Of a stretch of DNA of 32,639 bases, positions 22,989-32,639 are shown piece after piece. The position numbers and the translations under genes are program-made. The notes beneath the pieces are model-generated. The model ran no database searches. It was not told where the DNA came from and saw only the letters and a list, made by a program, of their open reading frames with translations. Location of the stretch: positions 1 to 32,639 of the forward strand of contig PEAN01000046.1 of NCBI GenBank assembly GCA_002753735.1. Direction: 5' to 3'. The first letter of the stretch is position 1. Each line of letters starts with the position of its first letter. Source of the DNA: Magnetococcales bacterium DCbin4 (GTDB lineage: Bacteria > Pseudomonadota > Magnetococcia > Magnetococcales > UBA8363).

Positions 22989-23963
22989 ATGAAGTTCATC
23001 GACCCCAGAATTGACTTTGCGTTCAAAAAAATCTTTGGCAGCGAGGATGCGAAGGATATTTTGATCAGTTTTTTGGAAAGTCTTCTGGGTTTGGAGGGCG
23101 AGCGCCGCATTGCCGAGTTGACCATTCTGGACCCATTTTTGGCACCGAAGATCAAGGATCTGAAGTATTCCATTCTGGATGTCACCTGCCGGGACCATCG
23201 CGGCATTTCCTACATTGTCGAGATGCAGGTACAAAAGGTGGCTGCCTTTTTAAAGCGGATTCAGTACAACGCCGCCAAAGCCTATGTCCACCAGATTGAA
23301 CGGGGTGAGGATTATCCCAGGCTCAACCAGGTGATTGCCATCACCATCACCGATTTTACGCTGTTCGATGGTTTTGAACATTGCGTTTCGCGGCACGAAT
23401 CCCGGGAGACTTTGACGGGGGCATCCCATCTTCAGGAGATCCTCTACTATTTCATCGAACTGCCCAAGTTTACCCGCTCATTGGATGAATTGTCCGATCT
23501 CCTTGATCAATGGATCTATTTCATCAAATTTGCGGGATCCTTGGAATCCATTCCAACCCGTATGAATCTGCCACCGATCCGGCATGCCTTTGAAAAGGCC
23601 ATGGTGGCCAACATGACCTCCGAGGAGTGGGAATTCTACGAAAAGGCGGGAATCGCCATCACCGACGCCAAAGGTGCGATTTTATTGGCGCGGGAGGAAG
23701 GCGAGGCCAAAGGGAGGAAGGAAGGCGAGGCCAAAGGGAGGAAGGAAGGTGAGGCCAAGGGAAGAATGGAAGGTGAGGCCAAAGGGATTCTGGAAGGTGA
23801 GGCCAAACTGCTGACACGCCTGTTGCAACGGCGTTTTGGCCCCCTCCCCGGCTGGGTTGGTGAAAAGATCGCCCGGGCCGATCTTCACTCCCTGGAAGCA
23901 TGGAGTTTACGATTGATGGAGGTTGGGTCGCTGGATGAGGTATTTGCGGACAGGCATTCATGA
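22989..23963 (+). CDS. Rpn/PD-(D/E)XK nuclease-family putative transposase
   Basis: A 324-residue member of the Rpn (recombination-promoting nuclease, PDDEXK_2) family. The N terminus MKFIDPRIDFAFKKIFG is the family hallmark. The nuclease core includes ILDVTCRDHRG and IVEMQVQK, giving the D...E-x-Q/K catalytic pattern. A charged linker built from five 8-residue units of the EGEAKGRK type follows (about 237-274). The C-terminal region KLLTRLLQRRFGPLPGWV resembles DUF4351. ATG 22989 has AGGG about 9 nt upstream and lies 18 bp after the previous gene. Such proteins cut DNA and stimulate RecA-independent transfer, and they often occur in many copies per genome. No inverted repeats flank this copy. 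Confidence 0.9.
   Translation: MKFIDPRIDFAFKKIFGSEDAKDILISFLESLLGLEGERRIAELTILDPFLAPKIKDLKYSILDVTCRDHRGISYIVEMQVQKVAAFLKRIQYNAAKAYVHQIERGEDYPRLNQVIAITITDFTLFDGFEHCVSRHESRETLTGASHLQEILYYFIELPKFTRSLDELSDLLDQWIYFIKFAGSLESIPTRMNLPPIRHAFEKAMVANMTSEEWEFYEKAGIAITDAKGAILLAREEGEAKGRKEGEAKGRKEGEAKGRMEGEAKGILEGEAKLLTRLLQRRFGPLPGWVGEKIARADLHSLEAWSLRLMEVGSLDEVFADRHS
23697..23810 (+). repeat. 24-bp coding minisatellite in the Rpn gene
   Basis: Four full units and one partial unit of a 24-bp repeat begin at 23697, 23721, 23745, 23769 and 23793. Units 1 and 2 are identical; later ones carry a few substitutions. The unit length is a multiple of three, so copy-number change alters linker length without breaking the frame. 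Confidence 0.95.
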
Positions 23964-27825: not shown

Positions 27826-27886
27826 GTTGGTTATTAAGGGTACATGATGGGGGGTTGTATGAATGCTTCAACAGGGATGGGATGCA

Positions 27887-28930
27887 ATGAAGGGATCAGA
27901 AAGACATTCGGGACAGATGCCGATTCTTGAATTTTTACTGCGGCATTATAAAAATTTCAACGCCCGGGTCACCCGGGATGCGACCCTGGCGTATTGGCGG
28001 CATATCGAGTCGGGGGGGCGGATGTTTTGGGCGATGGCGGGGGCGATGTCGTCGGCGCAGTTGGGTATTTCGCTGGCGCCGGCCATTCGTGCCGGTCTGG
28101 TGCATGGATTGTCGGTGACGGGGGCCAATTTGGAAGAATCGTTGTTCCGCCTGGTGGCACACGATCATTATCGTGATTTTCCCGACTACCGTTATTTCAC
28201 CAAGGAGGATGACGCCCGCATTCTGGCGGCACAAATGCGGCGGGTCACCGATACCAGCATCCCCGAGGATGAGGCGTTCCGGGCGGTGGAAAAAATTCTC
28301 GTCCCGATGTGGCAGGAGGCGGACCGAACCGGCAAGCGCCGGTTTTGGCATGAATATTTTTTCGAGTTGATTCAGACCATCGGAACGCAACCGTGTTCGG
28401 GGTCGCCTGATGAATGTTGGCTGTTGGCGGCGGCGCGGGCGAATCTGCCGATGGTGGTTCCCGGTTATGAGGATTCGACCTTCGGGAACATTTTTGCTTC
28501 CCATGTCAAAACCGAGGAGTGTTCCGCCCACATCGTCAAATCGGGGATCGAGGCGATGGCGTGGTTTTACGATGAATATGATCGTTTGTCCGCCGATCCG
28601 GGGGTGGGATTTTTTCAGATTGGCGGTGGGATTGCGGGTGATTTTCCCATTTGTGTCGTGCCGTCGATCAAGTATGACTTGCAACAACCGGTCAAGCCCT
28701 GGGCCTATTTTTGTCAGATTTCCGATTCCACCACCTCTTATGGTTCCTATTCGGGGGCCACGCCCAATGAAAAGATCACCTGGGACAAATTGACGCCGCA
28801 GACGCCGATGTTTGTCATCGAGTCGGACGCGACGATTGTGGTGCCGTTGATGTTAAATGCCCTGCTTGAATGTCGGAGCGATCCCGCCACTGCCAATGCC
28901 ATGATTGCCGCCGCGAGCAATGCGTGTTGA
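27887..28930 (+). CDS. deoxyhypusine synthase-like enzyme
   Basis: A 347-residue bacterial member of the deoxyhypusine synthase fold. Family signatures are AGAMSSAQLGISLAP, VTGANLEESLFRLVAHDHY, PMVVPGYEDSTFGN, GGGIAGDFPIC and SGATPNEKITWDKL. K301 in TWDKL aligns with the lysine that carries the butylamine intermediate in human DHS (K329 in SWGKI). The enzyme uses NAD and spermidine. Bacteria lack eIF5A, so the acceptor must differ: a polyamine, giving homospermidine-like products, or an unknown protein. ATG 27887 has GGGATGGG just upstream; ATG 27863 with GGGGGG is an alternative adding eight residues. It lies 61 bp after the membrane miniprotein gene on the same strand and may be co-transcribed. 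Confidence 0.9.
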   Translation: MKGSERHSGQMPILEFLLRHYKNFNARVTRDATLAYWRHIESGGRMFWAMAGAMSSAQLGISLAPAIRAGLVHGLSVTGANLEESLFRLVAHDHYRDFPDYRYFTKEDDARILAAQMRRVTDTSIPEDEAFRAVEKILVPMWQEADRTGKRRFWHEYFFELIQTIGTQPCSGSPDECWLLAAARANLPMVVPGYEDSTFGNIFASHVKTEECSAHIVKSGIEAMAWFYDEYDRLSADPGVGFFQIGGGIAGDFPICVVPSIKYDLQQPVKPWAYFCQISDSTTSYGSYSGATPNEKITWDKLTPQTPMFVIESDATIVVPLMLNALLECRSDPATANAMIAAASNAC

Positions 28931-28948
28931 AATCTATAAAAATTATTA

Positions 28949-29130
28949 AAAGAAAAAAGGGGTCTGGGGGATTGCCCCCAGGGTGTTGATTTTGATGTTG
29001 ACTTTGCTTTTCCATCCCCCACAGGGGGCCAGGTGGACGAAGTCCCCCAAGGTTCTCCATTAAATGATTTTGATCGATCACCAAAATGAAAACCCTGGGG
29101 GCAATCCCTTGAGACCCTTTTTTTTTCTCA
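28949..29130. repeat. composite inverted-arm repeat, second full copy
   Basis: The arms at 28949-28984 and 29092-29130 are near-complementary and enclose about 107 bp. The left arm holds the hairpin CTGGGGG-ATTG-CCCCCAG (28964-28981). The right arm ends in a run of eight T after GAGACCC, so a long stem with a T tract could terminate transcription from the DHS-like gene. The interior includes TTGATTTTGATGTTGAC, as in the copy at 17088-17278. The element fills the 215-bp gap before the prepilin gene. Confidence 0.8.
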
Positions 29131-29145
29131 CGCCCTGAAGTTCAC

Positions 29146-29751
29146 ATGTCCTTCCAAACCGCCCATGACGATCACCACCGAACAGCGGGTTTTTCCCTGC
29201 TGGAATTAAGTTTGGTGTTGATCATCATCACTTTGTTGATGGGGACGGTGTTGCGGGGGGAGAATTTGATGGATGAAGGACGTTTGCACCGCTTGGCGTT
29301 GGATCAGGCGGCGGTGGCGACGGCGGTGCAATCCTATGTGCGGCTGTATCATTTTTTTCCCGGCGACGATCCCAAGGCGCGGGAACGTTGGCCAGGGGCG
29401 ATCAACGGCGATGGTGATGGCCGGATTTTGCTGCTTTCGCCGGAAGAAACGCAGGCGTGGAATCATTTGATCCTGTCGCATTTGTTTGTTCCCAAATCCA
29501 TTTCAAACGGTTATCCCCAACACATCCTGGGTGGGAATTTCCGCCTGATTCACCATGCTGCCCGCCTGCCGGGTGTTACCTTGTGCATGGAAGACCTCCT
29601 TTCCCTTCAGGCCATGGCCTTCGACAATCGCCATGACGACGGCGATGGCCGCGAGGGTCGCATTCGCAATCCCGGTCCCTCCTTGAATACCAACGACACC
29701 GCCCCCTGGCCCATCGAGGGGGAACGTGTGACGATTTGCGTTGCGTTGTGA
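29146..29751 (+). CDS. prepilin-like protein (type IV pilin/T2SS pseudopilin N terminus)
   Basis: A 201-residue protein with a type III signal: a short leader, then TAGFSLLELSLVLIIITLLMG. Cleavage is expected between G14 and F15, with the conserved Glu at position +5 of the mature protein. The hydrophobic helix packs in the pilus core. The remaining 165 residues are soluble and rich in Asp, Gly and Arg (for example GDDPKARERWPG and DNRHDDGDGREGR), with two or three cysteines. No prepilin peptidase, ATPase or other pilin gene lies nearby. It may be a minor pilin or an orphan pseudopilin; which is unclear. No good Shine-Dalgarno precedes ATG 29146. Confidence 0.85.
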   Translation: MSFQTAHDDHHRTAGFSLLELSLVLIIITLLMGTVLRGENLMDEGRLHRLALDQAAVATAVQSYVRLYHFFPGDDPKARERWPGAINGDGDGRILLLSPEETQAWNHLILSHLFVPKSISNGYPQHILGGNFRLIHHAARLPGVTLCMEDLLSLQAMAFDNRHDDGDGREGRIRNPGPSLNTNDTAPWPIEGERVTICVAL

Positions 29752-29816
29752 AACATATTGACGTGATGGTTATGATGATGCTACAGTTTCATAGACCTGT
29801 TGTTTCGCAACGCAAC
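29740..29816. other. 15-bp inverted repeat at left edge of the AT-rich insert
   Basis: GTTGCGTTGTGAAAC (29740-29754) pairs with GTTTCGCAACGCAAC (29802-29816) with one mismatch, across a 47-nt loop. The left arm overlaps the prepilin stop codon. It marks the point where base composition shifts to AT-rich. It could be a terminator stem or the scar of an insertion boundary. Confidence 0.45.
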
Positions 29817-29904
29817 TAATTATTTTCAATGATTATGATCTAAGACATAATATTCAGATCTTTCGACTGTATTCCAATCTGGTTGCGGTTTTGAAAGGTG
29901 ACAC

Positions 29905-31863
29905 ATGGCTGAATCTTCCTGCCAACATGAACTTATACATTGCTGCAACGGTGTCCTTACACCAGACTGTCTCTTCAATTTAGTTGAAGCTGCAAAACTT
30001 GAATCCAATATAAATGGCGCTTTGGCTGGTTTCTCTATGGCAATAGCCATTGTTCTTATTACAAGTTCCGTACAAAATTCATCAGGAAAGGAAAATATTA
30101 ACCCATTAATGGAAGGATCTGTATCTGTTTTTGTTACAGCAACTTTTACAAGCATTTTAGCAGCGTATCTTTTTTCTTCTGTTGGATCTACGTGGGAACA
30201 CAACCAAATCCGAGCTCACTTACTGCTGTTCTCTGCCGGAATTCCATTCATTATTTCTGCAACTCTGTTCATGTTCGGCATCCTTCTAGCATTGGACAAT
30301 TTCAAGTTTGTAAGCGCAAGGAATGTCTCATGGTTCGTTCTATGGTTTCTAATATTTATAATAATGTTCCGTGTTATCGCAAGTTCCGTTGCAGTCGTTG
30401 CGATAATGAATAGTAAAATTGCCTGGGATATTTGGACTGATTATCACAAGCTTTTGTCTATCTCAATAGGTTTGTTGGGTTTCCCGTTGGTGAGTGTAAT
30501 CATTCGCTCTTTAGTAAAGTTTGGAATTTATGAGAATTGCTGGATATGCCGTTTTTCCAAGTGGCCAGATAATGGTGGTAATGTAATATATAATTTCCTT
30601 ATTTATTCTGCATTATTATGCCTTGTTTGTGCGATAGTGCCGCGTTTTTTTATAGACGATATTCCTATAGCTGTTCAGTGGTGGCACCTTCTATTTTATA
30701 TATTTGGCTATTCCCTGAACGTAGGATGGTTAATACTTATCATTCCAAGTTCAAGGAATAATAATCACATTAAGTATCGTCGCTCTAATAAAGAAGATAT
30801 TGAGAATACAGTCAATGAGGAGTCTATTATGTTATCAGATGAAAAAATTTGCTGCACAACAGCAATTAGTAGAGCAAAAGAGAGTTTTTCTGGATTTTAT
30901 TTTACAGCAATAAGCATTATACAGGGGGTGGCTTTAGGAAAGCTCGGGGACCAGTTTTACACGAAAATTAGTTCAGAGCATGGCGAATTTTTTGATGTTA
31001 TTCCTTATTTCTTGGTATCCTTTTTTGTATTATTTATTGTCCAATATGAAATTACTGGGATGGCAACATATTTCAAATGGGTTCCTCAATTTGTTGACAG
31101 TCTAATACCATTAGCATTGGGTTTTCTGGAATTTGGGCAGTGCCTTCTAATCGGGAATTCTGCTTGGTGGCTTGTTTCGACGTTCCTTTTTATTGTTGGT
31201 GCTTTTGGATTTTGGAATAGCTTAAGTCATTGTCGTGATTCTGATTATGCCGATACTGAAATGTGTAAATATGATAGAGACAATTTAATGAAGAGCTCCG
31301 TTATAGCTCTGATTCTTGCTTTGGCTATGTTTTTAGAATGGCTGTATTTTCCAATATTTGAATATCATATATTGTTCATGGTAATTATCTCTCTGATTGG
31401 ATTTGCTGTCTGGCGTATTTATGTCACAGATCTTCTCAGGGTTTGCTTAGAAAATAGTACTTCTATTGCTGATCAATGCCATGATTATTCGAGTAGATAT
31501 TTGTATCTTCCTAGATCCAATCAAAATGTGGCTGGCGGCGATGGACCCGAAGAATGCTCAGTGGCAGCGCGACCTTTCTATAAGTCACAACCAAATCGGC
31601 GAGGTTTTTCAAGAGCAAGGAAATCTGGAGGGTGCTCTGGACGCTTTTCGCTCTGGGATGGAGACCAGAAAGCGTCTGGCGGCGATGGACCCGAAGAACG
31701 CGGATTGGCAGCGCGACTTGGCCATCTCCAACGAACGAATGGGAACCCTCCTCGCAGAACAGGGAAAAAAAGAAGAGGCGGTTCCTTACCTGCGCGCCGC
31801 TGTTGCCATCGTCGAAGCGGCGTTTGCTCGGTTTCCCCCCAACCAAAAGCCGTTTCAGTATAA
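29905..31863 (+). CDS. AT-rich polytopic membrane protein, 3' end replaced by out-of-frame TPR sequence
   Basis: The first 541 residues or so form an integral membrane protein with about ten hydrophobic helices in two halves, separated by a charged loop near 285-320. I recognise no family. The N-terminal helix region INGALAGFSMAIAIVLI resembles the membrane anchors of several accessory-gene proteins, but this is weak. AAAGG 7 nt before ATG 29905 supports the start. Base and codon use are strikingly AT-rich compared with all neighbours, a sign of recent acquisition. From about 31532 the DNA becomes GC-rich and belongs to a TPR gene in another frame, so the last 111 residues (GGDGPEECSVAARPF onward) are not native. 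The protein is therefore truncated and chimeric. It may still insert in the membrane. Confidence 0.7.
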   Translation: MAESSCQHELIHCCNGVLTPDCLFNLVEAAKLESNINGALAGFSMAIAIVLITSSVQNSSGKENINPLMEGSVSVFVTATFTSILAAYLFSSVGSTWEHNQIRAHLLLFSAGIPFIISATLFMFGILLALDNFKFVSARNVSWFVLWFLIFIIMFRVIASSVAVVAIMNSKIAWDIWTDYHKLLSISIGLLGFPLVSVIIRSLVKFGIYENCWICRFSKWPDNGGNVIYNFLIYSALLCLVCAIVPRFFIDDIPIAVQWWHLLFYIFGYSLNVGWLILIIPSSRNNNHIKYRRSNKEDIENTVNEESIMLSDEKICCTTAISRAKESFSGFYFTAISIIQGVALGKLGDQFYTKISSEHGEFFDVIPYFLVSFFVLFIVQYEITGMATYFKWVPQFVDSLIPLALGFLEFGQCLLIGNSAWWLVSTFLFIVGAFGFWNSLSHCRDSDYADTEMCKYDRDNLMKSSVIALILALAMFLEWLYFPIFEYHILFMVIISLIGFAVWRIYVTDLLRVCLENSTSIADQCHDYSSRYLYLPRSNQNVAGGDGPEECSVAARPFYKSQPNRRGFSRARKSGGCSGRFSLWDGDQKASGGDGPEERGLAARLGHLQRTNGNPPRRTGKKRRGGSLPARRCCHRRSGVCSVSPQPKAVSV

Positions 31864-31915
31864 TTTGGAAAGACTCCGGGCAATCCTGGATGCCATCGAA
31901 AAGCCAGAAAAATAG
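31532..31915 (+). pseudogene. 3' remnant of a TPR-repeat protein gene
   Basis: In the frame ending at 31915 the sequence encodes two TPR units with a 48-residue period: LAAMDPKNAQWQRDLSISHN, then IGEVFQEQGNLEGALDAF; and LAAMDPKNADWQRDLAISNE, then MGTLLAEQGKKEEAVPYLRA. A C-terminal cap, NLERLRAILDAIEK, follows. The unit starts at 31532 and 31676 share the words CTGGCGGCGATGGACCCGAA. The 5' part is missing: upstream DNA is the AT-rich membrane gene. An open frame from 31466 exists, but its first residues belong to the foreign DNA. Such TPR tracts are usually parts of long repeat proteins, so this is a fragment. Confidence 0.8.
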
Positions 31916-31947: not shown

Positions 31948-32356
31948 TCATGGCCATTCCCAAGGGTCGATCACGTCCAGACCAGGAAAAAGGAAATCCT
32001 GCCGGTTGTGCGTCACCAGCCGCAGTTCATGATGCAGGGCCGTGGCAGCAGGCAAACTGTCGATGGCGGGCAGAGAACGTCCAGTTTCTCCCAACAGCCG
32101 TCCCCTGCGGTCGGCCACGGACAGGTCGATGGATAAAACCCTCTGACCGAACCATCCGGGAAGATCGTGTTCCAGCCACAGACGCAACCGCTCCCGTCGG
32201 GATCCGGGGGCGAGACGCTCCACCCCCTTGTGACCCAGGGTCAGTACGCTGACATGGATGTGATGATCAGGAACCTGAGACAACCAACGGAGTACCGTCG
32301 GATTCGGCTCGGTGCGCACCATTTGATAGCCCATGGGTGTCGAGCAGGTAGCTCAC
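31948..32356 (-). pseudogene. frameshifted vapC-type PIN-domain toxin
   Basis: Two frames together encode a VapC toxin (Mg-dependent RNase of toxin-antitoxin pairs). From GTG 32356 the frame reads VSYLLDTHGLS and then shifts. Restoring two bases near 32324 (GA on the minus strand) would continue as EMVRTEPNPTVLRWL, which is in frame to the stop at 31948. The second part has HIHVSVLTLGHKGVERLAP, SIDLSVADRRG, LPAIDSLPAATAL and LVTHNRQDF. The usual GEI before HKG is reduced to G, an apparent 6-nt in-frame deletion that removes a catalytic acidic residue. No antitoxin gene is visible upstream; that space holds hairpins. The toxin is therefore almost certainly dead. Confidence 0.8.
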
Positions 32357-32387
32357 GCCGGTTGTCAAACCTTTCAACCGGCAATGC

Positions 32388-32426
32388 GTTTGCCTTTCTT
32401 CGCAAAAAACGCGAAGAAAGGCAAAC
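32388..32426. terminator. perfect 16-bp hairpin upstream of the vapC remnant
   Basis: The arms GTTTGCCTTTCTTCGC (32388-32403) and its exact complement (32411-32426) surround a 7-nt loop of A and C. It lies where an antitoxin gene or a vapC promoter would be expected. There is no T tract. It is probably an intergenic palindromic repeat of the genome. Confidence 0.65.
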
Positions 32427-32442
32427 CAAGGCGCGCGCCTGC

Positions 32443-32477
32443 GCAAGATCCCCGCAAAAACCACGCGGGAATCTTGC
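32443..32477. repeat. second intergenic hairpin
   Basis: GCAAGATCCCCGC (32443-32455) pairs with GCGGGAATCTTGC (32465-32477) with one mismatch and a 9-nt loop. It follows the previous hairpin directly, so 32388-32477 is a tandem of two palindromes with no coding capacity. Confidence 0.6.
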
Positions 32478-32503
32478 TTCGGGTGAAAGGGCGCGTGAAA
32501 AAT

Positions 32504-32562
32504 AAAATCAAAATCAAAATCAAAATCAAAATCAAAATCAACACCCTGGGGGCAATCCCCCA
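32504..32562. repeat. AAAATC hexamer tract joined to palindromic repeat
   Basis: Six exact copies of AAAATC (32504-32539) run into the family core ACACCCTGGGGGCAATCCCCCA (hairpin arms near 32546-32552 and 32557-32563). The same association of TTTTGA words with this hairpin occurs at 17128-17265 and 28982-29000, so the hexamer is part of the dispersed element. Long open frames across it (Lys-Ile or Phe-Asp alternations) are artefacts of the repeat. After it, 32564-32639 shows nothing recognisable. Confidence 0.8.
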
Positions 32563-32639
32563 TATATGGTCCGCCCCGCGATGCAAGAGGAAATTTCATC
32601 GATAGTGAAGGAAGAGTTGCACCCATATATCCGGCCTTC

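What the first reader, a model, noticed from the sequence alone, without database searches (positions are those of the whole stretch)
29752..31915. AT-rich membrane protein gene joined out of frame to a TPR gene remnant
Base composition and codon use change sharply near 29752 and 31532. The right junction falls inside a TPR repeat unit, the left one beside a 15-bp inverted repeat. The membrane protein loses its native C terminus and gains 111 out-of-frame residues. This looks like recent acquisition into, or recombination with, a TPR gene. The membrane protein itself belongs to no family I recognise and could be an accessory or defence-type effector.
Basis: partly seen in the sequence, partly recalled or inferred. 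Interest (0 to 1): 0.5.

Follow-up and report, generated by a model that had tools for sequence, protein, structure and literature searches.

The report
Orphan membrane gene beside defence-gene debris
A foreign-looking gene for a membrane protein with no relatives found sits next to the leftover tail of an immune-sensor-type gene and a decayed toxin-type gene, in a spot that differs between related bacteria; it looks like ordinary gene turnover, although the protein itself is unexplained.

Summary
Between the stop codon of an intact pseudopilin gene (29751) and about 31515-31531 lies 1.78 kb of 36%-GC DNA in a contig averaging about 53%. It carries one genuine 541-codon frame (about 11 membrane spans) that runs out of frame into TPR-coding DNA, adding 111 residues. 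The TPR piece is the last two repeats and C terminus of a protein that is intact in G003 and G004 as TIR_2-nSTAND1-TPR; the TIR-nSTAND1 part has no match in the held assembly. The neighbouring PIN gene is decayed. In G006 the same spot holds other genes (NTP_transf_2, DUF2442, another TPR gene). So this is a variable spot with turned-over, partly broken accessory genes. Simple insertion into a TPR gene is not supported: the left neighbour is an intact pseudopilin, and no target duplication or shared terminal repeat was found. The membrane protein had no relative in the collections searched and gave low-confidence models, so loss of its C terminus and a defence role cannot be tested. Most likely a laterally acquired orphan gene joined by recombination to a sensor-gene tail. 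Low to moderate interest.

The parts
27863..28930 (+). deoxyhypusine-synthase-like gene (PF01916), conserved left neighbour
   Evidence: Pfam; precedes the pseudopilin in 6 of 6 relatives with an orthologous pseudopilin (five by BLAST, G006 by eye)
29146..29751 (+). intact pseudopilin-like gene, left border of the variable site
   Evidence: N_methyl match just below the curated cut-off; 53-70% identity in 6 of 7 same-genus relatives, to residue 200 or 201 of 201
29740..29816 (.). 16-bp inverted repeat (one mismatch) with 45-nt loop spanning the pseudopilin stop; perhaps a transcript-end hairpin
   Evidence: not called a terminator by the scan, role is inference
29752..31529 (.). AT-rich foreign-looking segment
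   Evidence: change-point fit; no other copy in the own genome
29905..31527 (+). orphan membrane protein, 541 codons, about 11 membrane spans by hydropathy; open frame runs on out of frame to 31863
31528..31863 (+). 111-residue out-of-frame extension of the membrane ORF read from TPR DNA (stop included)
31517..31915 (+). 3' remnant of a TIR_2-nSTAND1-TPR type gene: last two TPR units and C terminus
31948..32356 (-). decayed PIN-domain gene
   Evidence: 78-83% DNA identity to four relatives; the G001 copy is PIN (PF01850, E 1.1e-17) while the window copy has no Pfam match at E<=0.001 and its N-terminal part lies in another frame
32358..32639 (.). dispersed intergenic repeat at the contig end
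   Evidence: many matches in G000 and its relatives

Best explanation
The stretch after the pseudopilin gene is a variable chromosomal spot in which accessory genes come and go. In this genome it received, from an unknown AT-rich source, a gene for a polytopic membrane protein; recombination joined its 3' end to the tail of a TIR-nSTAND1-TPR sensor-type gene whose front part is gone, and the next gene (a PIN-domain gene) has also decayed. The membrane gene has a purine-rich stretch before its ATG (seen by eye) and could be made as a 652-residue product with a meaningless Arg/Gly-rich tail. Shown: composition, open frame, intact left gene, remnant nature of the TPR and PIN pieces, differing content in relatives. 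Inferred: lateral origin, order of events, expression, and any function in the membrane.
For: Composition and frame statistics. No match in the 99 other genomes, 7 of them of the same genus (three of those only 74-78% complete). The TPR piece aligns to residues 954-1080 of 1086 of the G003 protein and ends near its C terminus; that protein and the G004 one carry TIR_2, nSTAND1 and TPR. No other place in the own genome matches the TPR piece at E<=0.001. PIN copy decayed. Downstream of the pseudopilin the six relatives differ, only G001 and G005 being alike; G006, with the closest pseudopilin, has NTP_transf_2, DUF2442 and another TPR gene there.
Against: No donor, target duplication or shared terminal repeat was found, and no mobile-element gene was recognised in the frames adjoining the site (not every window frame was scanned), so the route is unknown. 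Promoter-like sites upstream of the gene are no more than chance for the region (5 found, 5.8 expected). The inverted repeat couples the pseudopilin end to DNA inside the AT-rich segment, which a very recent insertion exactly at 29752 would not explain unless the arm arose by chance or the true boundary is right of 29816. The genome is a 148-contig draft and the right junction lies in repeat DNA, so misassembly is not excluded.
Confidence: 0.62

Rival explanations
1. Misassembly or binning chimera: the AT-rich segment belongs elsewhere and was joined to TPR DNA through repeat sequence.
For: Draft assembly of 148 contigs; TPR units repeat nearly exactly (52 nt at 85%); no other genome searched has the gene.
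Against: Two false joins would be needed; the AT-rich stretch and its left edge have no other copy in the genome and hold no copy of the TPR unit.
Confidence: 0.12
2. Real gene fusion: the membrane protein and the C-terminal TPR units once formed one in-frame protein and the frame has since shifted.
For: Same strand, direct abutment, only the frame differs.
Against: Composition changes at the junction; no homologue showing such a fusion was found.
Confidence: 0.1
3. Insertion of a mobile element carrying the membrane gene into an intact TPR gene.
For: Right junction inside a TPR unit.
Against: An intact pseudopilin gene, not TPR sequence, lies left of the segment; the TIR-nSTAND1 part has no match in the assembly; no target duplication, and no inverted word over 6 nt shared by the two ends.
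Confidence: 0.08
4. The protein is a membrane effector of a defence system whose sensor was the TIR-nSTAND1-TPR gene.
For: Neighbourhood of sensor-type and PIN debris.
Against: No PADLOC match at E<=1; no relative of the membrane protein among the frames of at least 80 residues in the 20 kb fetched around the intact sensor gene of G003 or of G004; TPR and membrane-gene DNA differ in composition.
Confidence: 0.08

Closest known systems
Laterally acquired AT-rich orphan genes (ORFans)
   Same: Low GC, no relatives found, sits at a variable spot, not found in 7 congeners
   Different: Long and polytopic; joined directly to a broken gene
TIR-nSTAND1-TPR sensor-type proteins (Pfam TIR_2, nSTAND1, TPR)
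   Same: The window TPR piece matches the last two repeats and C terminus of two of them
   Different: TIR and nSTAND1 parts are missing here
PIN-domain (VapC-type, name recalled) genes
   Same: Window 31948-32356 is 78-83% identical at DNA level to copies in four relatives
   Different: N-terminal frame lost and the 'LGEIRKG' stretch altered; no Pfam match
MAB_1171c family putative transporters (NF042915)
   Same: Weak match over residues 40-193 (E 0.037, 13 bits)
   Different: Far below the curated cut-off of 100 bits; treated as chance

Membership tests
TIR-nSTAND1-TPR protein (for the TPR piece) | C-terminal TPR array of the same repeat type | tested here: met
   61% identity to the G004 and 56% to the G003 match; 54% to residues 954-1080 of the G003 protein; alignment
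TIR-nSTAND1-TPR protein (for the TPR piece) | TIR and nSTAND1 domains present | tested here: not met
   no match to residues 1-747 of the G003 protein in the held assembly at E<=0.001
PIN-domain protein (31948-32334) | PIN domain recognised by Pfam | tested here: not met
   0 families at E<=0.001 for the window frame; the G001 copy matches PF01850
Mobile element insertion | target-site duplication or terminal repeats at both ends | tested here: not met
   exact words only, 29700-29850 against 31480-31560
Known anti-phage defence protein | match to a PADLOC model | tested here: not met
   0 families at E<=1
Known membrane protein family | match to Pfam, NCBIfam, PHROGs or PDB sequences | tested here: not met
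   nothing at E<=1 in Pfam, PHROGs, PDB; one NCBIfam match far below cut-off
Known membrane protein fold | structural match | tested here: inconclusive
   single-sequence models had mean pLDDT 45.8 (543 residues) and 49.8 (222 residues), judged too low to search

The most novel reading that the evidence does not exclude
The 541-residue protein is the first seen member of an unknown family of polytopic membrane proteins (perhaps a membrane effector of a conflict system), and its out-of-frame TPR-derived tail is translated and tolerated, a new C terminus made by overprinting.
Probability: 0.1. Interest if true: 0.5.

Novelty: new member of a known kind. Interest (0 to 1): 0.22.

Why it matters
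It marks a variable spot beside a conserved pseudopilin/deoxyhypusine-synthase-like pair where sensor-type and toxin-type genes are gained and broken, and it supplies one long membrane protein for which no relative was found. If the chimeric product is made, it would be a snapshot of a protein end arising from another gene's second frame.

Tried and rejected
Homology for the membrane protein: Pfam, PADLOC, PHROGs and PDB sequences gave nothing at E<=1 and NCBIfam one match far below its cut-off. 100 relatives (own genome included) and 398 genomes of the phylum (own and others of the first set included) gave the gene itself and, four weak matches: the best, G168 (E 8.3e-5, 27% over residues 453-531), overlaps a 300-residue frame that I take, from recall, for a RarD-like multi-span transporter; the other three contain 4, 6 and 4 stop codons. 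All four were dismissed as chance. Genome contigs, viral contigs (whole, and as two halves), plasmids and phages gave none; the peptide-pattern scans reach close relatives only. A guessed motif (E..IN.ALAGF) gave 6 stretches in viral contigs and 61 in genome contigs, none related by tblastn (best E 0.98).

Structure: two single-sequence predictions were too poor to search, so no fold search was run.

An integron-cassette reading of the inverted repeat was considered by eye from a recalled attC consensus and rejected; no tool tested it. Rfam (gathering scores) and tRNA scans of the window were empty. Internal duplication of the membrane protein: best E 0.003 without composition correction, over hydrophobic stretches; not believed.

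In one search I passed a wrong frame (L058:11955-13463, 0 families) for the PIN gene; corrected with L036. The alignment mixed orientations; PIN decay rests.

Papers: search listings with abstract starts; passages of PMC7159879. None is used as evidence for the locus, and no claim is made that anything is absent from print.

After the filing check I mended: wording on the inverted repeats in the window, the extent of the assembly search for the sensor gene, identities, the promoter scan result, and the statement on mobile-element genes.

Full report
The window is the whole of contig C31 of a 4.52-Mb assembly in 148 contigs, 96% complete, unnamed. The segment lies near the contig's right end, which is a dispersed repeat with many matches in this genome and its relatives.

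Observation. GC content drops at the stop codon of the pseudopilin gene (29751) and returns at about 31529. The segment's main frame, 29905-31527, has third-position GC 0.31, while 13 upstream frames have 0.55-0.69. The 541-codon frame is far longer than anything in 2000 simulated sequences of like composition (maximum 211), so it is coding. Hydropathy gives 11 membrane spans. The frame then continues for 111 residues into TPR DNA in the wrong frame; in the G003 and G004 homologues the same alternative frame contains stops, so the tail is not a conserved overlapping frame in these two.

Right side. The TPR frame holds two repeats and a natural C terminus. In the genus, 6 of 8 genomes, the own one included, match it at E<=0.001; G002 and G006 do not, and the G005 match is weak. 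In G003 and G004 the match is the end of proteins of 1086 and 1092 residues with TIR_2, nSTAND1 and TPR; G007 has another TIR_2-nSTAND1-TPR protein cut by a contig end. The 20 kb fetched around the G003 and around the G004 gene show no match to the window's proteins at E<=1e-5. In the own genome a search with the whole G003 protein finds this piece and three matches in other long frames, all confined to residues 748 and later, the TPR part. So the piece is a remnant of a gene whose front part is not in the assembly. By eye, similarity fades between 31532 and 31517, so the junction cannot be fixed to the base.

Next to it, 31948-32356 on the minus strand is 78-83% identical to DNA in G001, G003, G004 and G006. 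The G001 copy is a PIN-domain protein (E 1.1e-17); the window copy has no Pfam match, its N-terminal part is in another frame, and the 'LGEIRKG' stretch is altered (that its glutamate is catalytic in PIN proteins is recalled). The two genes right of the membrane gene are therefore both broken.

Left side. The pseudopilin gene runs to its natural end and has orthologues of 53-70% identity in 6 of 7 same-genus relatives; G002 has only a weak match. A deoxyhypusine-synthase-like gene precedes it in all six (five by BLAST, G006 by eye). What follows differs: G001 and G005 agree with each other, the rest do not. In G006, which has the closest pseudopilin, the next genes, on the opposite strand, are an NTP_transf_2 protein, a DUF2442 protein and the end of a different TPR gene (one search shows no meaningful similarity to the window's TPR piece). 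In G003 an MCPsignal frame and in G004 a cytochrome c' frame follow, which are not of conflict type. So the spot is variable; that it tends to hold conflict-type genes rests on two genomes and has exceptions.

Junction features. The inverted repeat at 29740-29816 is real and spans the pseudopilin stop. Of four other repeats of equal quality in the window, two lie at or near a gene's 3' end, which mildly favours a transcript-end hairpin; the terminator scan, which allows loops of 3-8, did not call it. Promoter-like sites in the region are at chance level. No target duplication links the two boundaries, and the segment has no second copy in the genome.

Mechanism. Most likely the membrane gene came in by lateral transfer and recombination joined it to the sensor-gene tail. 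The order of events and the agent are not shown. The product would be a polytopic membrane protein with an Arg/Gly-rich tail (17 Arg and 18 Gly of 111); its role is unknown and could be transport, signalling or a conflict effector. The defence reading has only the neighbourhood in its favour.

Novelty. No family, solved-structure sequence or genome match was found for the protein in the collections named in Tried and rejected; this is absence in those searches at their sensitivity and not proof that no family exists. Orphan AT-rich genes at variable spots are ordinary (established knowledge), so interest is low to moderate.

Noticed in passing
window 32358-32639, and a short related stretch at 29082-29108: Dispersed intergenic repeat with dozens of matches in G000 and several relatives, often at contig ends; probably a cause of assembly breaks.
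   Followed up: no
window 27863-29751: A deoxyhypusine-synthase-like gene (PF01916) next to a pseudopilin gene is a conserved pair in six congeners; why these two travel together is unclear.
   Followed up: partly
L053:11072-14350, L054:5708-8968: TIR_2-nSTAND1-TPR proteins in two relatives whose TPR units are nearly identical repeats, suggesting repeat turnover within the array.
   Followed up: partly
window 22989-23963: PD-(D/E)XK transposase-family protein with DUF4351, with partial relatives in the G007 and G006 stretches.
   Followed up: no
L047:3-1610: G006 has NTP_transf_2, DUF2442 and a TPR gene at the same spot after the pseudopilin.
   Followed up: partly
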